Part shown: in pieces, positions 31,330 through 39,993 of the stretch
Numbering within the stretch: position 1 is the first letter of the stretch
Layout of the letters: each line of letters starts with the position of its first letter
NCBI GenBank assembly: GCA_003135135.1
Contig: PLDK01000024.1
Location: 1 to 52,081, forward strand
Direction: 5' to 3'
Origin: Deltaproteobacteria bacterium
GTDB taxonomy: Bacteria > Desulfobacterota > Binatia > Binatales > Binataceae
Length of the DNA stretch: 52,081 nucleotides
Notes under the pieces: generated by a model
Database searches by the model: none
What the model was told of the DNA's origin: nothing
The model's input: only the letters and a program-made list of their open reading frames with translations
Translations under genes and position numbers: made by a program

Positions 31330-31552
31330 ATCCATAAGGCCCAAAGCACAAGGAGCAACCGCATACTTTCGTTCAGTGAGCCGGGACGCGAGGCTCTTTC
31401 GGGCTCTCAGTGGATGAAGGAAATAGCTGTCCTATGGCTTTTTTGCTTTTTGCACAGTCGGGATCTTCGGGGAATTCGACCACGAACCGGCGCCAAAACC
31501 GGCGCCAGTCGATCGAGGCGAAATCGCCGATTCGCGTAACTGGCTGATTTCG
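31330..31552. other. left flank of the island, with a decayed right-arm-like sequence
   Basis: No gene is seen. Bases 31485-31552 align with 39851-39917, the inner side of the island's right end: two GGCRCY boxes 12-13 bp apart, then AATCGCCG, GCGTAA and CTGATTTC at nearly the same spacing. This lies outside the left attachment repeat, so it may be a relic of an earlier, related insertion. Confidence 0.45.
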
Positions 31553-31598
31553 TTGGTGGGCGGTGCAGGTTTCGAACCTGCGACCCCCGGCTTGTAAG
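31553..31598. other. left attachment site (duplicate tRNA-Val 3' end)
   Basis: A 46-bp perfect copy of 39918-39963, covering the 3' part of tRNA-Val(TAC) from the anticodon loop to CCA (minus sense). The tRNA 5' half is missing here, so it is not a working tRNA gene. It is the remnant left when the element inserted and replaced the tRNA 3' end. Confidence 0.92.
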
Positions 31599-31905
31599 AA
31601 CGAAAAGAAGGTTTCCGATACTCCGCGTAGAGCCTCATCTTTCGAGCGGGAAACCCCACGGGCAGAAGGGGTTTCTGTACTAAAGAGTGTCACAGAATAC
31701 CATCAGGCGATATGGCTTGTTGGCTCCACTTTGGCACCGAAGATGGCACTAATCTGGCACTGGAACCTAACATTCGTTAGGCAGGAAACTACATCGCCAA
31801 CCGCCGAAGGGTGCAATGGGTAGTCGAAGCGGCGAAAGCCAGATCATCCCAGGGTCATCCGCTAGTTTGTTCCGCCGTTTGATGGCGCGCTGTGCGGATT
31901 GATTC
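31599..31905. other. left inner end of the island, with arm-type repeats
   Basis: No gene is seen in this stretch beyond the integrase stop. It contains a 23-bp block (31740-31762, three TGGCAC boxes when the preceding bases are included) repeated at 39850-39872. It also has CGAAGGGTGCA (31805-31815), the inverse of an 11-mer present four times at the right end. Confidence 0.7.
31740..31762 (+). repeat. 23-bp terminal direct repeat, left copy
   Basis: Identical to 39850-39872. It contains two TGGCACT boxes 11 bp apart and a third, TTGGCACC, just upstream. Position inside both ends of the element fits a recombinase or excisionase arm site. Confidence 0.8.
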
Positions 31906-33036
31906 TCAGGATGACCGCGCCGCACTGGCGTCGGCCTGTGGCGCCTTTTCGGCTCCGAGCGCGAGCTTGCCGACGGCGGCTTTCATAAACGCATCGCTCA
32001 GGTGCGTGTAGCGGCCGGTCATACGGCCGTCCTTGTGCCCGAGAAGCCCTTGGAGCCCGCGTTGAGGCGTGCCGGCCATCGCCGCGTAGGACGCGAAGCT
32101 ATGCCGCAGATCGTGGAGCCGGAAGTCTGGGATGCCGGCGCGCTCGACGGCGCGGCGAAAGGCGCGGCTGACGCAATGGTCGTCCTTGAACGGGAAGAGG
32201 CGGCCGTCGATTCGGGCAGGGAGCGCCCGTAGAGCCTCGAAAGCGGTGTCGTTGAGATAGACAGTGCGGCTCTCGCCATTCTTGGTCTTGGTGAGCGTCA
32301 GAAAGCGATTGGTCCAGTCGATCGAGCGGCGGGTGAGAGACAGGATCTCGCCGCGGCGCATCCCGGTGTTGAGCGCAACCAGTACGAACGGCTTGAGATA
32401 GGAAGATCGAGACTCGCCGCACGCGACGATCAGACGTGGGATTTCATCGAGGCTCAGGAAACGGCACCGGCCTGACGGTTCCTTGAGCGGGCGCCAGCCT
32501 TGGAGCAGGTAGCGATGCAGGTGATGCCAGGCGACGGCGCGCTTGAGGATATGCCGGAGCACGGCTAGCTCGCGGTTGACCGTGCTTGGCGTGGTGACCG
32601 CCCTTTCCCCGGCGCCCTCGCATTCAGAGCACGCGATGCCGGCGATCTTCTTTTTGCCCTCGCAATCGGGGCAGATGACCGGCTTGAGCCGGCTCGCAAC
32701 GTAGGACTCGACGGCTTCGAGAGTGATCGATCGCAGCAATCCCGTGAAATGCGGGCGGAGATGGTTGTCGAGAATACCGCGCCAGCGTTCGGCGGTTCGC
32801 GGCGCGATCGTCGCGGAGACCTTGGGCCACCAAATCTTTTCGGCGAAGTCCGCGAAATCGGTCGCTGAATCGTCGATGATCCCGAGATACTGGCGCCGGG
32901 CGACCGAACCCAAGAGGCCGTCCAGCACTTCCCGCGCAACGCGCTTGCTCGGGCCGATCCTGCGCCGGCGCCGCACGCCGTCAGCGTCCGAGAAGTCGAT
33001 CCAAAAGGCTCCGTCACGACGGAATACTCTAGCCAT
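31906..33036 (-). CDS. int: tyrosine recombinase (integrase) with zinc-ribbon-like insert
   Basis: A 376-residue phage-type integrase. The catalytic set is complete: R227 (NTGMRRGEIL), H308-x-x-R311 (HDLRHSF), H334 (LLGHKDG) and nucleophile Y343 (GRYTHL). An N-terminal arm-binding domain is at about 1-50 and a core-binding domain at about 60-180. Residues 122-143 hold CPDCEG and CSECEGAG, a CxxC-x10-CxxC pair like a zinc ribbon, unusual inside the core-binding domain. ATG 33036 follows AGGGAG and overlaps the preceding gene by 8 bp. Longer upstream frames lie within that gene and are rejected. It should act on the tRNA-Val site. Confidence 0.93.
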   Translation of the reverse strand: MARVFRRDGAFWIDFSDADGVRRRRRIGPSKRVAREVLDGLLGSVARRQYLGIIDDSATDFADFAEKIWWPKVSATIAPRTAERWRGILDNHLRPHFTGLLRSITLEAVESYVASRLKPVICPDCEGKKKIAGIACSECEGAGERAVTTPSTVNRELAVLRHILKRAVAWHHLHRYLLQGWRPLKEPSGRCRFLSLDEIPRLIVACGESRSSYLKPFVLVALNTGMRRGEILSLTRRSIDWTNRFLTLTKTKNGESRTVYLNDTAFEALRALPARIDGRLFPFKDDHCVSRAFRRAVERAGIPDFRLHDLRHSFASYAAMAGTPQRGLQGLLGHKDGRMTGRYTHLSDAFMKAAVGKLALGAEKAPQADASAARSS

Positions 33037-33772
33037 GATTCTTTTCTCCCTTCCGGCGCCCGAGGCGCTGGACCTTGATGTTCTTTCCAGTCTGTTTCTT
33101 GACGGTCTGCTCGTAGCGCCTATGGCGAAGCTCATACAGACGTTCAGGGCCACGCTTTTCGGCCCACTTCGCGGTGCGCTCGCGCTGCGAGCACAGGGGT
33201 GAGTCATACGCCTGGCCCTTGCTGGCGCTGAACAGCCGGCCGCATTCCCGGTAGCGGCACTCGCGGATGCGGTGCCCGTGGTTTTTCACGAGGTCGAAGG
33301 CGGCCCGGAGAAAGGCGCCAGCGGGCGCTCCGATGTAAAAGGGGATCAATCGCGACTCGCCGGGCCGGCCTGTGATGCCTTCGGTAAAATCGCCCAAGTC
33401 TTCATGCGTGATCGCAAACGAGCGGGGGTGGATTATCTTGTTGCCGCCGCCATGGCTCACGCCCTCAACCCGGCCGAACAGCGCCTCGACACCCTCGCGA
33501 ACCTTGCGCGCGAGCGCATCGACAACATCGCGCGAGGGCGCCCACGGCTCGTCCGCGGGCCAGCGGTAGCCGGCATCCGTCGAGAAGACTTGCATTTCGT
33601 CAACAAGCTCTTGGAACGCTACAGCCGGGAGCTTGCCGGGCTCCCCTTGGGCGAAGGTCAAGAGCCACGTCAGCCGCGCGGAGGGCCTGGTGCCGACTCG
33701 GACTAACGCTCGATCGTGAGGTTCAAAGAGTCGTTTTGTCAAACGCCGTCCACCTGACTTATGCACTTTCAT
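33029..33772 (-). CDS. uncharacterised protein with cysteine-rich finger, coupled to integrase
   Basis: A 247-residue product (ATG 33772 chosen; ATG 33796 is the alternative). The N-terminal part has an alpha/beta look with LTWLLTFAQGEPGKLPAVAFQEL. The middle contains SRLIPFYIGAPAGAFLRAAFDLV. The C-terminal part has CRYRECGRLFSASKGQAYDS and PLCSQRERTAKWAEKR, a treble-clef-like CX4C...C pattern resembling CGNR-type fingers, and a basic tail. Its stop overlaps the integrase start by 8 bp, so translation is probably coupled. A DNA-binding partner of integration is inferred; the family is not firmly recognised. Confidence 0.7.
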   Translation of the reverse strand: MKVHKSGGRRLTKRLFEPHDRALVRVGTRPSARLTWLLTFAQGEPGKLPAVAFQELVDEMQVFSTDAGYRWPADEPWAPSRDVVDALARKVREGVEALFGRVEGVSHGGGNKIIHPRSFAITHEDLGDFTEGITGRPGESRLIPFYIGAPAGAFLRAAFDLVKNHGHRIRECRYRECGRLFSASKGQAYDSPLCSQRERTAKWAEKRGPERLYELRHRRYEQTVKKQTGKNIKVQRLGRRKGEKNHG

Positions 33773-33837
33773 TGTCACAACAATAATCTCTATCATACCT
33801 GTTGTCAAACATGACCATGGACACATATTATCCGTGT
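33773..33837. promoter_or_regulatory. divergent control region of the element
   Basis: About 65 bp separate the divergent starts of the integrase-side operon (33772, minus) and the excisionase-side operon (33838, plus). Both promoters must lie here or just inside the genes. The segment is AT-rich relative to its surroundings and holds the imperfect inverted repeat ACAC-ATATTATCC-GTGT (33821-33837), a candidate operator. This layout is that of a phage-type switch. Confidence 0.5.
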
Positions 33838-34035
33838 ATGCAAACAAACAGCGAGAAGCAGGACCACCGCCGCGTTGCGTTCAGCGTTGCCGAGTTGGCT
33901 GCGCAGCTTGGAGTTTCGGAGGGGCTGTTGAGGCTCGAAATCCAGCGCGGCCGGCTTAAACCCGCCCGTGTTGGCAGGCGGCTTGTGATCATGAAGCCAG
34001 AGCTTGATCGCTACCTCGCCGACGCGCGCGCGTAG
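33838..34035 (+). CDS. excisionase-like helix-turn-helix protein
   Basis: A 65-residue product (from ATG 33838) with a MerR/Xis-type winged helix: FSVAELAAQLGVSEGLLRLE then RGRLKPARVGRRLVIMKPEL and DRYLADARA. This is the excisionase-family DNA-binding pattern, in which the wing follows GR. In-frame ATGs at 33811 and 33817 would add up to nine residues without family likeness. The stop TAG is directly followed by the ATG of the next gene. It is the first gene of the rightward operon and could be the excision directionality factor or the operon regulator. Confidence 0.85.
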   Translation: MQTNSEKQDHRRVAFSVAELAAQLGVSEGLLRLEIQRGRLKPARVGRRLVIMKPELDRYLADARA

Positions 34036-35727
34036 ATGAGCGCGAACGCTGACAATCTCTTGCGCGTCCCGCCGCAGAATCTCGAAGCAGAGCAATCGGT
34101 GCTCGGCGCGATTCTGCTCGACAACGACGCGATCAATCAGGCGCGGGAATTCTTGAGCCCCGACGATTTCTACCGCGATTCGCATCGGCTGATTTTCCGC
34201 GCGATGGTTGAGCTGAAAGATCGCAAACAGCCAATCGACGCGATCACTCTGACGGACGCTCTCACGGCGCGCGGCGCGTTGGAGCGAATCGGCGGTCCGG
34301 CCTATATCGCGGAGCTGGCTTCGATCGTACCGACGGCCGCGAACGTGGTGCACTACGCGCGCATCGTGCATGACAAGGCGCGTCTCCGCGTCGCGGGCCA
34401 AATCGGGCAGGAATTGGCAATAGCCGCTTGCGAGAACGCGGACCCCGACGAAATTACGACTGAGGCGCAGCGCAGCCTTGAGCGGATTCGCTTTCCCCGC
34501 GCCGGCCAGCCGGTGCTCGGACTCCGCGGCGATCAGATTTCGCCAACCGAGACCGATTGGTTTTGGGAAGGGTACATCGCGCGAGGATGCCTGACCCTGT
34601 TCGATGGCGATCCCGGCGAGGGAAAATCGACGCTCACTATCGACCTCGCTGCGCACGTGAGCCGCGGCCGTGACTTTCCAGATGCTTCGCCGTGCCCGCA
34701 AGGAATTGCGATCATTGCTTCCGCTGAAGATTCTCCGTCAGCGACTATTATTCCGCGCTTGATCGCGGCCAGAGCGGACTTGGCAAATGTTCATATAGTC
34801 CCGATCGCTCGCGACACCGCCGACGGGCCTCAATTGCTGACCCTTCCTGAGGATCTCGAAATCCTCGAGAATACGGTTGTGCGAACCCGCGCTATTCTCG
34901 TAATCATCGATCCTTTAAGTGCCTTCACGTCGAACAAAATCAATAGTCGGATCGACACGGATGTCCGGCGCTTACTTGCCGGATTGACCGGCGTCGCCGA
35001 ACGCACCGGGGCCGTAGTCGTCGTGGTCCGCCATCTCAACAAGACCGCCGGTACGAACGCGATTTATCGCGGCGGCGGCAGCATCGGGATCATTGCGGCT
35101 GCGCGAGCCGCCTTCCTGATCGGGGCCGACCCCGACGACGAAGCGAAGAAAATTTTTGCTCCGGTAAAAATGAACCTCGCACCCAAACCGCCCGCGCTGG
35201 CTTTCCGGCTCGTACAAACAGAAGGGGACAGTGTTGCTCACGTCGAGTGGATTGCGGGGGAAACGCCACTCAGCGCGTCTGACTTGCTGCGGGCACCGCT
35301 CGAAGAGCCCGGAACCAACAAGTTTCAGATGGCAGTTGAGGTACTGATGGAGCAACTGGGCGCGGGTCCGGCGCCGGTCAGAGGCGTTGAGACAGCGGCC
35401 AAGGTTAGGGGTGTCTCCGAGCGCACCCTGAACGCCGCGCGCAAGGTTTTGAAGATCGAGGCGTTCAAGGACGGGCTTGGTCCCTGGCTCCTCAAACTGC
35501 CAAACAGTGACGGATCGAAAAACTCCAACGGGGCCGGCGACTCTAGCGCCTCACCGGCTCCCCTACCTCAGTCCGAATCGACCGACGATTCGGATGATGA
35601 TGCTGCGTTCGAAGTTCTGATCAAGGCCGGCTGGATTCGGCCGGCCGACAATTATGATGATGATGAGTTTGACCGCGCGGCGCGCGTGGCTGAGGCGGTC
35701 AACGCGACCTTGGAGGAGGGACTATGA
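34036..35727 (+). CDS. DnaB-N / AAA_25 (RepA-like) replication ATPase
   Basis: A 563-residue chimera. Residues about 8-110 match the DnaB helicase N-terminal domain (PPQNLEAEQSVLGAILLDND, then DDFYRDSHRLIFRAM). About 175-400 is a RecA-like ATPase of the RepA/AAA_25 type with Walker A GDPGEGKST (191-199), Walker B ILVIIDPLSAF and RHLNKTAG. About 430-495 is a winged helix-like end typical of phage AAA_25 proteins (VRGVSERTLNAARKVLKI). An acidic tail follows. The DnaB-type catalytic domain is absent. Likely role: initiator or helicase-like ATPase for replicating the excised element. Start abuts the stop of the excisionase gene; its end overlaps the next gene by 4 bp. Confidence 0.85.
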   Translation: MSANADNLLRVPPQNLEAEQSVLGAILLDNDAINQAREFLSPDDFYRDSHRLIFRAMVELKDRKQPIDAITLTDALTARGALERIGGPAYIAELASIVPTAANVVHYARIVHDKARLRVAGQIGQELAIAACENADPDEITTEAQRSLERIRFPRAGQPVLGLRGDQISPTETDWFWEGYIARGCLTLFDGDPGEGKSTLTIDLAAHVSRGRDFPDASPCPQGIAIIASAEDSPSATIIPRLIAARADLANVHIVPIARDTADGPQLLTLPEDLEILENTVVRTRAILVIIDPLSAFTSNKINSRIDTDVRRLLAGLTGVAERTGAVVVVVRHLNKTAGTNAIYRGGGSIGIIAAARAAFLIGADPDDEAKKIFAPVKMNLAPKPPALAFRLVQTEGDSVAHVEWIAGETPLSASDLLRAPLEEPGTNKFQMAVEVLMEQLGAGPAPVRGVETAAKVRGVSERTLNAARKVLKIEAFKDGLGPWLLKLPNSDGSKNSNGAGDSSASPAPLPQSESTDDSDDDAAFEVLIKAGWIRPADNYDDDEFDRAARVAEAVNATLEEGL

Positions 35728-36239
35728 CCCAACCTGAAATCGCAGAGGCCCAAGGCTTCCTCAAGCGCGTTCACTACCGCCTCGATCGAATCGAAGCGGA
35801 AGTCCTTGCCTCACGCACGCGGGCGAGGGAGCTGCGCCCGATCGCGGATGGCTTTGCGGGCATCGTTGATCGGCAGTTCGCGATCTGGCGATCGGAATTC
35901 GCCCGAGCCCGAGCACAAGGAGCGATCGCGGCTGCTCACTGCGCACTGAAATGGAAAGAAAAGTTTGACGAACTGGCCCGCACGCCTTGGGGCGAGAGGT
36001 CAGCCATTGGTTTTCAGGTGTCGCAGCAAGCGGCATTGAGCCGTGCGCCTTTGCCGCCCATCTTCGATGCCGCGAATTTCTGCGCACGACTCGCGACCCA
36101 AGGTATTTTTCTGACCGTCAGCCCGAGCGGCGAAATTCTCGCGCGCGGCCGACTCGATCCGACCGCAAGGCAGATAATCACCCGTCACAAAGTCGAAATT
36201 GCCGCCTACTTGCAGACCCCGGCTCAAGTCGTAGCGTGA
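35724..36239 (+). CDS. element protein with TubC-N-like C-terminal segment
   Basis: A 171-residue product. ATG overlaps the previous stop (ATGA) and has GGAGG upstream. The first 100 residues are alpha-helical and rich in Arg and Ala. The last 55 (NFCARLATQGIFLTVSPSGE, then ITRHKVEIAAYL) resemble the small TubC-N/primase-associated fold seen at the ends of phage replication proteins. That resemblance is from pattern memory only. Context in the replication-packaging operon suggests an accessory replication role. Confidence 0.7.
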   Translation: MTQPEIAEAQGFLKRVHYRLDRIEAEVLASRTRARELRPIADGFAGIVDRQFAIWRSEFARARAQGAIAAAHCALKWKEKFDELARTPWGERSAIGFQVSQQAALSRAPLPPIFDAANFCARLATQGIFLTVSPSGEILARGRLDPTARQIITRHKVEIAAYLQTPAQVVA

Positions 36240-36252
36240 AGGAAGGCCAACC

Positions 36253-36465
36253 ATGAACGAACAGAATCCGCAGCCACCACTCGACGCGCGCAAATTGCGG
36301 CCGGACACCTACAAACTTATGAAGGCCGATCACCTGGCCGAGCTGCGCAAGCCGCGGCCTGTTGTGTTGCCGGCCGCGTCCAAGCCGCTTGCAGACATGG
36401 ATCGTCGCGAGTACGAAAAGCACCAAAGCGCGACAATGAAGGCGCTTCGCGGGCGAAAACAGTGA
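36253..36465 (+). CDS. small hypothetical protein of the element
   Basis: A 70-residue basic protein rich in Lys, Arg, Pro and Leu, with AAGG about 10 bases before the ATG. It lies 13 bp after the previous stop, and its own stop overlaps the GTG of the next gene (GTGA). No family is recognised. Tight coupling and codon use support a real gene. Confidence 0.65.
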   Translation: MNEQNPQPPLDARKLRPDTYKLMKADHLAELRKPRPVVLPAASKPLADMDRREYEKHQSATMKALRGRKQ

Positions 36466-36911
36466 ACGAGTGCGACAACAACGGCAATGGCGGCCCGCCG
36501 GCGCCCGCCGGCGACACGCGGCTTTTCGTGCGTTCTCGGTACCGGCGCGTTCGCCCGCAGGTTGTGCGGCGCCTTACCGCCAAGGTGCGAGAAATTTGTC
36601 CGTGGGTCCGCGATTGTGATCAACCTCTGGTACGGGCGTGGGCACAAATTGAGTTATTGGCGGATGAAACCTTCGCCAACCTGTACAAGAGTGGGGTGGT
36701 TACTCCGAAAGGCGAGCCTCGGCAGCTAGTGAACACATTGAGGGCGTTGAGAAACACTCAGATCGCTCTCGCGATTCAGCTTGGCCTAAGTCCCCGAGCG
36801 CGCCTTGAGATAACCCGCGGCGATCATCCCGGCGCACTCGACGCGGTGAGCCGAAGAATTCAGGACGCCGTCGCGGCCGACGCGAGCGAGGGCCATGAAT
36901 CCGAATCTTGA
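36462..36911 (+). CDS. terS: terminase small subunit-like protein (P27-type)
   Basis: A 149-residue product from a GTG that overlaps the previous stop. The helical middle (VRDCDQPLVRAWAQIELLAD) and C-terminal NTQIALAIQLGLSPRARLEI follow the phage P27-type small terminase pattern, in which LGLSP-x-R near the end is common. The small subunit recognises the pac or cos site and hands DNA to TerL. Immediate overlap with the large subunit gene (17 bp) supports the call. It is a likely but not certain assignment. Confidence 0.72.
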   Translation: MNECDNNGNGGPPAPAGDTRLFVRSRYRRVRPQVVRRLTAKVREICPWVRDCDQPLVRAWAQIELLADETFANLYKSGVVTPKGEPRQLVNTLRALRNTQIALAIQLGLSPRARLEITRGDHPGALDAVSRRIQDAVAADASEGHESES

Positions 36912-38280
36912 GTTGGCGCAAAATTCATTGCGCCACTTCGCGCCGGCCGTCTATCCAAGCTTCAAAGCTCCGCGTCACCTGCGGATGCTTGTTCACGAGC
37001 TGGAAGCCTTGGAGCGTGGCGACCATGATCGCCTGATCGTCACGATGCCGCCGCGCCATGGGAAAAGCCTGCTCACTTCTGCGATCTTCCCGAGCTGGTT
37101 CATCGGGCGTCATCCCGAGTCCTCGATCATCGCGGCGTCGTATGGACAAGAACTGGCGTCTGACTTCGGCCGGCGCGTCAAGGCGATCGTCACTGACCTG
37201 GCCTTCCGCAGCATCTTTCCTAACGTCCGACTTCTGGAAGATTCGCAAGCGACTCACAGACTGGGGACCATTCAAGGCGGACTGTATTTCGCAGTCGGCG
37301 CCGGCGGCGCGCTCACCGGCCGCGGCGGCGATCTGATCGTCCTCGATGACCCGATCAAGAACCGCGAGGAAGCCGAGAGCGATACTGCGCGCCGCTCATT
37401 GCAGGGTTGGTTCGAAAGCGTTCTGTACCCGCGCCTGGAGCCCGGCGGCCGAATAGCTCTGATTCAAACGCGATGGCATGAGGCCGACCTATGCGGCTGG
37501 TTGCTCTCCGAGCACAAATCTGAAAATTGGCGCGTCGTGAATTTGCCCGCGCTGGCGGAGACAGACGACCCGCTCGGGCGCGCCGAAGGCGAAGCACTCT
37601 GGCCCGCGCGTTACCCGCTCGAAACTCTTGAGCGCATCCGTGAGGCAATCGGGTCAGCCGCGTGGCTATCGCTCTATCAGCAGCGCCCGCAGGCCGCCGA
37701 AGGCGGAATCTTCAAGCGCGATTGGTGGCGGTCCTTCGACCCGGACGATCAGCAGGAGCCCTTGCGGATCACTCTCTCGCTCGATACCGCTTTCTCCGCG
37801 AAGCAATCCGCCGACTACTCAGTCTGCGAAACTTTTGCCGAATGCGCCGATGGCTACTACCTGCTCCACGTCTGGCGCGGGCGAGTCGAGTTTCCGCGAC
37901 TGATCGCAATCGTGAACGAGTTGGCCGATCAGTGGAATCCTCACGCGCTCCTCATCGAAGATGCAGCATCAGGGCAATCGCTCATTCAGGCGTTACGCGC
38001 GTCAACGATCCTTCCTGTGATCCCGGTCAAGCATCAGTCCAGGAGCAAGGAAGCCCGAGCCGCCGCAGCCTCGCCGATGGTCGAAGCCGGCCGCGTGTTC
38101 CTGCCCCGCGAGGCGCCCTGGCTCCCGGCTTTCCTCGATGAATTGTCCTCGTTCCCCAACGGCGCGCACGACGATCAGGTTGACGCGCTGTCGGGGTTTC
38201 TGAACTGGTCGCGACTCTCACCGATCGAGAGCGAGGACTACTCAGATAACAGTGATTTGAACGCCCTCTTTGGGCGATGA
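36895..38280 (+). CDS. terL: phage terminase large subunit
   Basis: A 461-residue DNA-packaging motor. ATPase domain: Walker A MPPRHGKS (about 51-58), Walker B GDLIVLDDPI (about 144-153), and the coupling region ALIQTRWHEADLCGWLL. Nuclease domain with RNase H-like acidic residues: SLDTAFSAKQSADYSV (about 295), LLIEDAASGQSLIQAL (about 352) and GAHDDQVDALSGF (about 427). Both activities look intact and the length is normal. It overlaps TerS by 17 bp. No portal gene follows, which is where one would normally be found. Confidence 0.93.
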   Translation: MNPNLELAQNSLRHFAPAVYPSFKAPRHLRMLVHELEALERGDHDRLIVTMPPRHGKSLLTSAIFPSWFIGRHPESSIIAASYGQELASDFGRRVKAIVTDLAFRSIFPNVRLLEDSQATHRLGTIQGGLYFAVGAGGALTGRGGDLIVLDDPIKNREEAESDTARRSLQGWFESVLYPRLEPGGRIALIQTRWHEADLCGWLLSEHKSENWRVVNLPALAETDDPLGRAEGEALWPARYPLETLERIREAIGSAAWLSLYQQRPQAAEGGIFKRDWWRSFDPDDQQEPLRITLSLDTAFSAKQSADYSVCETFAECADGYYLLHVWRGRVEFPRLIAIVNELADQWNPHALLIEDAASGQSLIQALRASTILPVIPVKHQSRSKEARAAAASPMVEAGRVFLPREAPWLPAFLDELSSFPNGAHDDQVDALSGFLNWSRLSPIESEDYSDNSDLNALFGR

Positions 38281-38303
38281 AATTTTGGAGGTGAACGAAA
38301 GTT

Positions 38304-38525
38304 ATGGCGGCAAAAATCAAACCCGATCGCGAATACAAGCGGCCCGAGCAGCCGCTTCCCGAAAAGCGCGCACAGCGCGCCGGCGGTCCGAGCATGAAAG
38401 TGCCGGGCAGGGGCGGCGTGAAGCGCCAGCCCCTGAACCCCACTCAGGCTGACCGCAGCGCCGTCCACGCCGCTGACGCAATGTCGAGCGTAGGCGGCCC
38501 GGCCGACGAGTACGACCGAGACTAG
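38304..38525 (+). CDS. small basic hypothetical protein
   Basis: A 73-residue basic, Pro/Arg/Lys-rich protein, probably disordered. GGAGG lies 10 bases before the ATG at 38304, and the gene follows TerL by 23 bp, so it ends the rightward operon. No family is recognised. Confidence 0.65.
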   Translation: MAAKIKPDREYKRPEQPLPEKRAQRAGGPSMKVPGRGGVKRQPLNPTQADRSAVHAADAMSSVGGPADEYDRD

Positions 38526-38534
38526 GGCGAGAGG

Positions 38535-38575
38535 GGCGCGGCCAACTCACGGGGCGCGGTATCCTGGCCGCGCAC
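38535..38575. terminator. possible bidirectional terminator between convergent genes
   Basis: CGCGGCCA and TGGCCGCG form an 8-bp stem about 20 nt apart between the stops of the plus-strand operon and the minus-strand 38605 gene. There is no T tract, so it is a weak candidate. Confidence 0.3.
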
Positions 38576-38604
38576 GGGAAACCCGCGAGCCCGCGCCCCC
38601 ATTT

Positions 38605-39057
38605 TCAACGGCAACGCGCTGCGAACTCGGCGCACGCATCGCGGTCGGGATAGTTGGGCGAGTTTGAGTCGTAACAATCCTGGTACTCGCTGGTGCAGTC
38701 CGGGCCGGCATACCCCACGCTGAAGTCTTCGAGGGCGGGCTTGTGGAGCTTGAGTTTCTTGCCGCTCAGGATTTTTTGCTCGTCCTGCCGGCGGTCGGCG
38801 GATGGCACCCCTTGCTCGACTACTTCGCATAGGATCTTGCTGCCGATGTGCACGATTGTCACGGCGCCGCCTGGTCCGTCGAACGTGGTCTCTCGGCCCT
38901 TCTTGCCGTTAAGCTCCGGCGGCACCTTGTAGCTTTTGCAATCAGGAAACGCCGACGCGCCCGCCATTGCCGGACTGGCGGCCAACAGCGGGCTTGCGCT
39001 GGCGATCGCAACTAGCGCGGCGAACGCGGATTTCATCGTCGTCTTTAGTTTTTTCAT
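38605..39057 (-). CDS. small secreted cysteine-containing protein
   Basis: A 150-residue product with a clear signal peptide (basic start KKLKTTMK, hydrophobic 10-25, likely cleavage after AMA near 32). The mature part has six cysteines including CTSEYQDCYDSNSP and ends DACAEFAARCR, suggesting disulphides in the periplasm or outside. No family is recognised. It is placed at the right end of the element, away from the replication operon, where cargo genes usually sit. The second ATG (seven codons in) is an alternative start. Confidence 0.68.
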   Translation of the reverse strand: MKKLKTTMKSAFAALVAIASASPLLAASPAMAGASAFPDCKSYKVPPELNGKKGRETTFDGPGGAVTIVHIGSKILCEVVEQGVPSADRRQDEQKILSGKKLKLHKPALEDFSVGYAGPDCTSEYQDCYDSNSPNYPDRDACAEFAARCR

Positions 39058-39247
39058 TGCGGCCTGGCGCGCCGCTTTATACCGCAGAGACCGTCAGCGC
39101 ATCTACCGCAAAGAGCCACGCCGGCCTTGCTCACTATCCAAACTCCGAGCGGCCGTCGGGCTTCGCATCCGCATCCGCACTGGCAGTCGCTCTCTTTCGG
39201 CGTGTCTGGTTTTTTGGTTGAACCGTCGCTCAGCGGGCACTCAAGTT

Positions 39248-39523
39248 TCATTTGAGCCTTAGTTCGCGAGTGCCTTCAACTTCCTCGGTGAAAAGCATCA
39301 CCTTGTGGCTTATGTGACCGGACGCCTCCCAGACGATGTGTTCCACGTTCAGAATTCTGAGCACGCGCATTGGGGCCTTCGAACCGGTCCAGAGACCCGG
39401 ATTCAAAATATCGCCCTTCGAGAACGCCATGAACGGTTGGAGGGCCTGAAAAGAAACCCACACATCATCGGCGCTACCTGGAAGGTAAATCTCCAGATGG
39501 TATTCGACATTTGTCGCACTCAT
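39248..39523 (-). CDS. small conserved-looking hypothetical protein
   Basis: A 91-residue soluble protein with alternating hydrophobic strands (EYHLEIYLPG, VWVSFQALQPF, PMRVLRILNVEHIVW). A strong AAGGAGG lies 11 bases before the ATG, which makes a real gene likely. No known family or motif is recognised. It is separated by 190 bp from the secreted-protein gene on the same strand and could share transcription with it. Putative cargo or element-maintenance gene. Confidence 0.65.
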   Translation of the reverse strand: MSATNVEYHLEIYLPGSADDVWVSFQALQPFMAFSKGDILNPGLWTGSKAPMRVLRILNVEHIVWEASGHISHKVMLFTEEVEGTRELRLK

Positions 39524-39849
39524 TTTTTTTCATCCTCCTTAGTTCTAACCCAAAATCTAAAAGTTTCCAGCTACACGAGCAGGGGCCGCTGCCCGCACGC
39601 GCGCCGGTGCGCCGATGGTACCCCCCCTCTCTCCTACACACGTTTGCACCCTTTCACCCTTTAATTAAAACCCTTCTTAGAGAATGACTTTAGTGAAGAG
39701 TGCAAGAGATTGCACCCTTCGGTGTTTTGCACCCTTCGTTGCACCCTTCGTAGCGATGCTCCAAGAGGATTGCACCCTTCGTCTCCCGAGCCTGCGGGCC
39801 GCTCAGGCTTCAAGCTCACGGTCGCTTCCGACTGCTACCAAATTAGCAA
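39524..39849. other. right inner end of the element, repeat-rich and gene-free
   Basis: No convincing gene. The stretch is locally AT-rich (TTAATTAAAA near 39661). The perfect 11-mer TGCACCCTTCG occurs at 39711, 39728, 39740 and 39771, with a degenerate copy at 39645. The AT-rich block beside spaced direct repeats could be a replication origin; the same repeats could be arm sites for integrase. Confidence 0.6.
39711..39781 (+). repeat. four direct copies of an 11-mer
   Basis: TGCACCCTTCG at 39711-39721, 39728-39738, 39740-39750 and 39771-39781. Start-to-start spacings are 17, 12 and 31 bp. An inverted perfect copy lies at the left end (31805-31815). Confidence 0.85.
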
Positions 39850-39872
39850 AAGATGGCACTAATCTGGCACTG
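39850..39872 (+). repeat. 23-bp terminal direct repeat, right copy
   Basis: Identical to 31740-31762, in the same orientation, 45 bp inside the right attachment site. Contains two TGGCACT boxes. Confidence 0.8.
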
Positions 39873-39917
39873 AGGGGATTCGCTCGAATCGCCGTGCTGC
39901 GTAAGTGCCTGATTTCA

Positions 39918-39963
39918 TTGGTGGGCGGTGCAGGTTTCGAACCTGCGACCCCCGGCTTGTAAG
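39918..39963. other. right attachment site within tRNA-Val
   Basis: Perfect 46-bp match to 31553-31598. It forms the 3' part of the intact tRNA-Val gene, so the element restored the tRNA on integration. Confidence 0.92.
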
Positions 39964-39993
39964 GCCGATGCTCTACCACTGAGCTAACCGCCC
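39919..39993 (-). tRNA. tRNA-Val(TAC)
   Basis: Read on the minus strand: acceptor GGGCGGT pairs with ACCGCCC, D arm GCTC-AGTGGTA-GAGC, and anticodon stem TCGGC/GCCGG around loop CTTACAA, giving anticodon TAC. The T arm is GCAGG-TTCGAAA-CCTGC. Discriminator A and CCA are encoded. The 3' half is supplied by the integrated element, and the gene is complete. Confidence 0.95.

What the first reader, a model, noticed from the sequence alone, without database searches (positions are those of the whole stretch)
31553..39963. Compact phage-satellite-like element with replication and packaging genes but no particle genes
Seen: a 46-bp perfect tRNA-Val repeat at both ends, a complete integrase, an excisionase-like gene, a DnaB-N/AAA ATPase, and a TerS-TerL pair with intact ATPase and nuclease motifs, in an 8.4-kb element with a divergent phage-like switch. 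No portal, capsid, tail or lysis gene is seen. Known satellites (P4, PICI, PLE) carry subsets of such functions and borrow helper particles. An element bringing its own TerS and TerL but no portal or capsid would be an uncommon layout. A decayed prophage is the alternative, but the overlapping genes and short intergenic gaps argue against random loss.
Basis: partly seen in the sequence, partly recalled or inferred. Interest (0 to 1): 0.8.

Follow-up and report, generated by a model that had tools for sequence, protein, structure and literature searches.

The report
Phage satellite with its own terminase
An 8.4-kb piece of DNA parked in a transfer-RNA gene of a little-known bacterium looks like a parasite of viruses that brings its own DNA-packing motor but no virus shell, and related bacteria carry further elements of this kind.

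Summary
Window 31553-39963 is an intact 8,365-bp element between exact 46-bp copies of a tRNA-Val end. It carries integrase, an HTH_17 excisionase-like gene, a DnaB-N/AAA_25 replication protein, TerS and a TerL with its catalytic residues, about 89% coding. Its largest unassigned gene (247 aa) is too small for a portal. It is not an isolated relic: a sister genus has the same order in an 8,669-bp element at a predicted tRNA-SeC (TerL 58% identical, but interrupted there). Relatives of the TerS mark eight att-bounded elements in Binataceae-like genomes: two with this TerL type, four with an unrelated TerL (phrog_9), two with a weak TerS-like gene only. No portal or capsid gene was found in them with the families tried; some add a tape measure, and an unbounded relative a tail-spike-like gene. 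Best reading: a phage satellite that packages itself with its own TerS-TerL motor into helper procapsids, between SaPIs (TerS only) and cf-PICIs (whole head). Excision, packaging and helper are inferred. The own genome shows no portal or capsid by three families. New variant of a known kind.

The parts
31553..31598 (.). attL: 46-bp copy of the tRNA-Val 3' part
   Evidence: exact repeat with 39918-39963
31740..31762 (.). inner 23-bp repeat, left copy (TGGCAC-type, probable integrase or Xis arm site)
   Evidence: function inferred
31805..31816 (-). 12-bp motif TTGCACCCTTCG, inverted left copy
31906..33036 (-). tyrosine integrase (start taken at 33036)
   Evidence: PF00589 6e-30; 56% identical to the int of element L255
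33029..33772 (-). zinc-finger-like protein, 247 aa from the ATG chosen (272 aa from the first possible start), overlapping int by 8 bp
   Evidence: no Pfam or PHROG match; 28% identical over 212 aa to the gene in the same place in L247, E 3e-17
33838..34035 (+). HTH_17 excisionase/AlpA-like regulator
   Evidence: PF12728 8.9e-8, phrog_66 9.5e-5
34036..35727 (+). replication protein: DnaB N-domain (residues 12-113) plus AAA_25 (166-338)
   Evidence: N-domain 64-69% to DnaB of the own genome and genus, C-part 45% to the element protein in L145
35724..36239 (+). 171-aa protein; its C-terminal part resembles a 208-aa protein of element L255
   Evidence: 36% over 64 aa, E 4e-10
36253..36465 (+). 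70-aa protein of unknown function
   Evidence: no family match
36462..36911 (+). terminase small subunit, Terminase_4-like
36895..38280 (+). terminase large subunit, ATPase and nuclease motifs present
38304..38525 (+). 73-aa protein of unknown function
   Evidence: open frame only
38605..39057 (-). 150-aa protein, possibly exported (signal-like N-end by eye)
   Evidence: homologue beside element L255, 43% over 119 aa; no family match
39054..39251 (-). 65-aa cysteine-rich protein
   Evidence: open frame; no Pfam match
39248..39523 (-). 91-aa protein of unknown function
   Evidence: no family match
39710..39781 (+). four direct copies of TTGCACCCTTCG: candidate replication iterons or packaging site
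   Evidence: function inferred
39850..39872 (.). inner 23-bp repeat, right copy
39918..39963 (.). attR: 46-bp repeat at the tRNA-Val gene
39919..39993 (-). intact tRNA-Val (tac), integration target
   Evidence: ARAGORN

Best explanation
An intact, integrated phage satellite of a Binataceae-like bacterium. Int inserts it at the 3' part of tRNA-Val between 46-bp att sites (shown by sequence). On infection or induction by a helper phage, Xis and Int excise it (inferred). Rep replicates it, perhaps from the TTGCACCCTTCG repeats, using a DnaB N-domain taken from a host to engage the host replisome (inferred). Its TerS selects its own DNA, and its TerL docks on the helper's portal and pumps that DNA into helper procapsids, which the helper then tails (inferred). 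It thus brings the whole packaging motor and borrows the whole particle.
For: Complete att-bounded island, about 89% coding, overlapping or close-set genes in one direction from xis to terL. Three same-genus genomes with a 95.5-96.5% identical right flank lose homology within 12 bp of the tRNA end, and no element protein matched in the stretches fetched there. A second element, at a different tRNA in a sister genus, has the order int-zn-xis-rep-...-TerS-TerL. Eight bounded TerS-bearing elements, 7.4-13.5 kb, each at a tRNA gene, yielded no portal or capsid with the families tried. The TerS family persists while TerL is of two families, and the TerS tree needs at least two changes of TerL type: packaging genes are exchanged, not just lost. 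Two bounded relatives carry a TerS-like gene without TerL, the SaPI condition, though these matches are weak. A quick TerL tree puts the element with loci of the same bacterial family at SH-aLRT 98; one of them, L185, has a major head protein (phrog_334).
Against: No excision, replication or packaging data. The own genome has no Phage_portal, Phage_capsid or Phage_capsid_3 match, so no resident helper was found. Viral-contig scans with Rep and TerS gave no relative, and with the 171-aa protein only one 27-residue match that was not followed. The sister's TerL is interrupted. TerS annotation is weak taken alone. In the TerL tree the same-family loci sit on a long branch (2.0 changes per column), so their grouping is unsure; by identity two viral contigs (L034 51%, L035 48%) are closer than those loci (44-45%). 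Islands of the same Rep-Int type persist without any terminase.
Confidence: 0.7

Rival explanations
1. A prophage that has lost head, tail and lysis genes; what remains is a relic.
For: TerL is of phage origin (2,601 phage records match it, all under 60% identity). The sister copy has an interrupted TerL and the same genome holds a further TerL fragment.
Against: The same reduced order recurs at another tRNA with an only distantly related integrase and a different Rep N-half; no broken gene was seen in the window element; TerL motifs are kept; relatives have another TerL family beside the same TerS family.
Confidence: 0.13
2. A tRNA island whose TerS-TerL pair has been turned to another use, such as interfering with packaging by incoming phages, and which does not package itself.
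For: No helper in the genome by the three families tried; related islands with Rep and Int but no TerS or TerL match exist (L145, L153, L155), so packaging genes are not needed to persist.
Against: Motor with both ATPase and nuclease motifs, own TerS and replication genes in one direction; the wider set includes tape-measure genes, which fit particle use.
Confidence: 0.14
3. An ordinary integrative element mobilised in another way, with terminase genes as recent passengers.
For: The Rep and Int module is shared with islands that lack terminase.
Against: TerS-TerL sit inside the gene block and recur in six bounded elements at five tRNA targets; no relaxase family among the matches of the ten proteins scanned.
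Confidence: 0.03

Closest known systems
PICI / SaPI (phage-inducible chromosomal islands)
   Same: Integrase at an att site, own replication protein, TerS, no capsid genes; some SaPIs encode a TerS to redirect packaging (PMC10690885, passages read). Divergent early genes: recalled.
   Different: SaPIs rely on helper TerL (recalled); here a TerL is encoded beside TerS. No repressor, capsid-size or interference gene was recognised.
Capsid-forming PICI (cf-PICI)
   Same: Encodes both TerS and TerL.
   Different: cf-PICIs also encode major capsid protein, protease, portal and connectors and borrow only tails (PMC10690885, passages); none of these was found here.
PICMI
   Same: Small, int plus AlpA-type regulator (its model accepts PF12728), often a gene overlapping int, no capsid-remodelling genes (PMC10803314, abstract start and passages).
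   Different: Its genome model asks for fis and a DUF3987/DUF5906 primase, and the word terminase does not occur in the paper's main text; here tRNA-Val, DnaB-N/AAA_25, TerS and TerL.
P4-like and PLE satellites
   Same: Integrated elements dependent on helper particles.
   Different: P4 is packaged by the P2 terminase at cos sites (PMC10690885, passages); no P4 or PLE marker was recognised among the matches here, but no dedicated model was run.
Mulch/Flayer satellites of Streptomyces phages
   Same: Carry TerS and TerL.
   Different: Also carry portal and major capsid and lack key replication genes (PMC10690885, passages): nearly the reverse of this element.

Membership tests
Phage satellite (general) | att-bounded, 7-20 kb, integrase, regulatory and replication genes, no virion structural genes (PMC13376191, start of abstract) | tested here: met
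   8,365 bp
Phage satellite (general) | DNA is packaged in particles made wholly or partly by a helper phage | not testable with these tools
   needs reads or virions; viral-contig scans gave no copy
PICI/SaPI | TerS without TerL, helper TerL used (recalled) | tested here: not met
   TerL present; two relatives, L255 and L256, have weak TerS-like genes and no TerL match
cf-PICI | own major capsid, portal and protease | tested here: not met
   0 matches in the own genome for PF04860, PF05065, PF13252; largest unassigned gene 247 aa (272 from its first start), leaving out frames antisense to assigned genes, up to 298 aa
PICMI | DUF3987/DUF5906 primase and fis-linked site | tested here: not met
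   Rep is DnaB-N/AAA_25; site is tRNA-Val
PICMI | int plus AlpA (PF12728 accepted) | tested here: met
P4-like | psu/delta/sid and an alpha-type primase (recalled) | tested here: inconclusive
   no such Pfam or PHROG match among ten proteins; SatelliteFinder models were not run
Decayed prophage | broken genes or remnants of a longer phage gene order | tested here: not met
   no broken gene seen in the window element; same short order in L149, where TerL is interrupted

The most novel reading that the evidence does not exclude
Binataceae-like bacteria hold a satellite lineage with a 'bring your own motor' strategy: a full TerS-TerL holoenzyme, exchangeable between two unrelated TerL families, loads helper procapsids through the helper's portal, and some members add a tape measure or tail spike to re-cut or re-aim the helper's tail. 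This would be the mirror image of cf-PICIs, which make heads and steal tails, and it includes a replication protein fused to a DnaB N-domain taken from a host.
Probability: 0.35. Interest if true: 0.82.

Novelty: new variant of a known kind. Interest (0 to 1): 0.62.

Why it matters
The satellites described in the passages I read either adjust helper packaging (TerS, Rpp, cos sites) or build a whole head. A lineage that carries the complete motor and no portal or capsid would fill the gap between them, and makes testable whether a terminase can work on a foreign portal. It also places satellites in a group for which the one paper found with the terms Binatota and prophage (listing only) was a plant-microbiome study.

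Tried and rejected
TerS structure: AlphaFold2 on the single window sequence gave an all-helical model with mean pLDDT 60, and Foldseek against PDB gave nothing at E 0.001 or better; not used.

Viral-contig scans with Rep, the 171-aa protein and TerS gave no usable relative (the one short match, L144, was not followed). The genome-contig scan with Rep returned five loci with full-length DnaB genes, treated as chromosomal. They were used only to place the host: DnaB of three same-genus genomes is 78-79% identical to that of L031, a record named Candidatus Binataceae; three records titled Proteobacteria or Deltaproteobacteria are about as similar (75-80%). Host naming is therefore inference.

The empty site was sought through lon/HU. 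Right-flank homology ends within 12 bp of the tRNA in the three same-genus genomes read (G149, G243, G414; about 2.1, 18 and 10.3 kb beyond the tRNA were held); in G413 the contig ends at the tRNA, and G411 and G412 were not read there. Left neighbours differ, so a full left-right empty site was not obtained. The window's left flank (31485-31552) resembles DNA beside tRNA-Val in other genomes, so an older element scar there is possible.

I considered whether the 37-39% TerL loci (L159 of the own genome, L186-L188, L190, L195) belong to the same family. Rejected: other gene context, and those that were put in the tree form another clade (L195 was not in it).

Limits and dropped rows: L253 (TerS in two short pieces) was left out of alignment A2. 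The careful TerL tree did not finish; the quick tree is cited, and the TerS tree is quick too. Members L254-L256 are weak TerS matches. Not every unassigned ORF of the relatives was scanned against PHROGs or Pfam (in L252/L257 only the DnaB-like protein, in L256 only the TubC_N and TerS-like proteins, and the L252 TerS). My gene calls in the relatives come from a simple script, not a trained gene finder. After rechecking, I lowered the main confidence from a drafted 0.72 to 0.70 because of the long branch in the TerL tree.
Full report
WHAT IS THERE. The window lies in contig 46 of a 3.73-Mb genome in 51 contigs, 98% complete. The element runs from an exact 46-bp repeat at 31553-31598 to the second copy at 39918-39963, at an intact tRNA-Val gene. 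A 23-bp repeat sits just inside both ends. Gene order: int(-), a zinc-finger-like gene(-) overlapping int by 8 bp, a gap of about 65 bp (62 with the coordinates used), then xis-like(+), rep, 171 aa, 70 aa, TerS, TerL, 73 aa, and a block of three small genes(-). Rep and the 171-aa gene overlap by 4 bp, the 70-aa gene and TerS by 4, TerS and TerL by 17. Coding coverage is 89%; G+C is 0.610 against 0.617 in the flanks. The largest unassigned gene is the one beside int: 247 aa from its ATG, 272 aa from its first possible start; this leaves out frames antisense to assigned genes, the longest 298 aa. It is too small for a portal and improbable as a capsid. A 12-bp motif occurs five times in the window, all in the element, against 0.27 expected.

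FAMILIES. Integrase, HTH_17, DnaB-N, AAA_25, Terminase_6N and 6C are all over Pfam cut-offs; TerL matches phrog_38 at 4e-118. Residues expected for ATP binding and for the nuclease are present in the window and, in an alignment of 45 rows, in 44 for K57, D151, D152, D297 and D427 and in 41 for E355. The small subunit alone is below cut-off (E 0.041). Of its 13 collected members, 7 match Terminase_4 at E up to 0.1, best 7e-8, and 1 matches PHROG terminase small subunit.

REP IS A CHIMERA. Residues 5-151 are 69% identical to the chromosomal DnaB of a same-genus genome, and 5-150 are 64% identical to the own genome's; residues 150-495 match element proteins instead, best 45%. The N-half was probably taken from a host dnaB (inference).

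TERL ELSEWHERE. TerL matches 26 of 395 genomes sampled from the phylum at E up to 1e-20 and 17 of 148 of the class at 1e-10, the own genome included both times. In viral contigs the best are L034 (51%) and L035 (48%). In 50,697 phage records 2,601 match, all under 60% identity; the top row listed is 43.6%.

A SISTER WITH THE SAME LAYOUT. In genome G435, another genus of the same family, L149 holds an 8,669-bp element between 68-bp perfect repeats at a predicted tRNA-SeC, with int, a zinc-finger-like gene, xis, rep, TerS and TerL in the same order. TerL is 58% identical (229 of 395) and TerS 28%; the integrases share 103 of 323 aligned residues and Rep matches only in its C-part, 132 of 336. 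Its TerL is interrupted near the C-end, which tells against use in that copy. Two sites with the same reduced set argue against random loss.

A WIDER SET. The TerS profile (A1) hits 13 of 148 genomes of the class, window genome included. Reading the surroundings (fetched; analysed) gives eight TerS-bearing elements with both ends seen: window (tRNA-Val, 8.4 kb), L149 (tRNA-SeC, 8.7), L251 (tRNA-Ser, 10.2, repeats 91% alike), L246 (tRNA-Ser, 13.0), L258 (tRNA-Arg, 12.5), L252/L257 (tRNA-Arg, 13.5), L255 (tRNA-Glu, 7.4) and L256 (tRNA-Gly, 7.6). The first two carry phrog_38-type TerL (tested by PHROG in the window only; L149 by identity). The next four carry a different TerL: phrog_9 was tested in L251 and L246 and in the unbounded L245, while L258 and L252 were assigned by similarity to these. 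The last two carry only a weak TerS-like match. The L255 integrase is 56% identical to the window's, and a homologue of the window's 150-aa gene lies beside that element (43%). Islands with Rep and Int but no TerS or TerL match also exist: L145, L153, L155.

NO HEAD GENES FOUND. In the 13 TerS-bearing genomes, Phage_portal is found in 3 (none inside an element), Phage_capsid in 1 and Phage_capsid_3 in 0 (the third search also rang in G431, added as a prophage genome). Other portal or capsid families could be missed. Ten further ORFs of the relatives gave no portal or major capsid match (matches to families filed under head and packaging came only with the spike-like ORF). Not every ORF of every relative was scanned. 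Single tail genes do occur: tape measure by PHROG in L245 and L246 (about 1e-48) and more weakly in L250/L258 (1e-6), in L252/L257 by similarity, and a 589-aa spike-like ORF in L247. So 'no particle genes' is true of the window but not of every relative.

HISTORY. In a quick TerL tree of 45 rows, the window, L149 and a fragment of G435 fall with four loci of the same bacterial family (G415, G429, G430, G431), SH-aLRT 98, next to L034 and L035 (87). One of the four, L185, was tested and has a major head protein (phrog_334, 7e-83), so they may be prophages and helper kin. But those four sit on a branch of length 2.0, and by identity (44-45%) they are farther than L034 (51%), so this grouping is tentative. 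In the quick TerS tree the window's TerS sits with phrog_9-paired ones on a branch of support 97 that excludes L149; starred branches force at least two changes of TerL type. TerL partners have been exchanged.

MOBILITY. Three same-genus genomes share the right flank at 95.5-96.5% and lose homology within 12 bp of the tRNA end, without element proteins in the stretches held. G439 has an integrase fragment 61% identical at the same tRNA-Val. No read data were available; excision is inferred.

MECHANISM AND HELPER. Shown by sequence: site, integrase, motor genes with their motifs, no head genes found. Inferred: excision by HTH_17 and Int (in PICMI115 alpA is needed, and its expression in trans suffices, for excision; PMC10803314, passages), replication, self-packaging through a foreign portal. 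The own genome has no resident helper by three families; helpers need not be resident (PMC11389934, passages).

LITERATURE. Ten searches. Passages were read of PMC11389934, PMC13376191, PMC10690885, PMC10803314 and PMC12324425; others were seen only as listings. Nothing I saw describes an integrated satellite with TerS and TerL but no portal or capsid. Most subscription papers are not in that library, and the papers on cf-PICIs, VEIMEs and tycheposons themselves were not read, so this is no proof of absence.

Noticed in passing
L245:6005-8044; L246:6543-8645; L258:8788-11544; L257:468-3245: Tape-measure proteins beside TerS-TerL in elements where no portal or capsid was found: satellites that may set helper tail length.
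   Followed up: partly
L247:10642-12411: A 589-aa tail-spike-like ORF (pectate-lyase and lectin folds) in a TerS-TerL element whose one seen end is near tRNA-Phe.
   Followed up: partly
L159 (own genome C15); L186, L187, L188, L190, L195: Another island type: ParB-methylase (tested in L159 only), a small ORF and a 37-39% TerL; a serine-recombinase-like ORF (recalled motif) lies downstream in the latter five. Possibly a second terminase-bearing mobile element.
   Followed up: no
window 34036-34485: Rep N-domain 64-69% identical to DnaB of the own genome and genus: capture of a host replisome domain by a mobile element.
   Followed up: partly
L149:2830-2929: A predicted selenocysteine tRNA gene (ARAGORN, anticodon tca) used as integration site.
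   Followed up: no
window 31485-31552: Left flank resembles DNA beside tRNA-Val in G420, G427 and G435 (repeat-rich); possible scar of an older element at the same site.
   Followed up: partly
L265:587-1033: Integrase fragment 61% identical to the window's at the same tRNA-Val in G439: shared hotspot.
   Followed up: no
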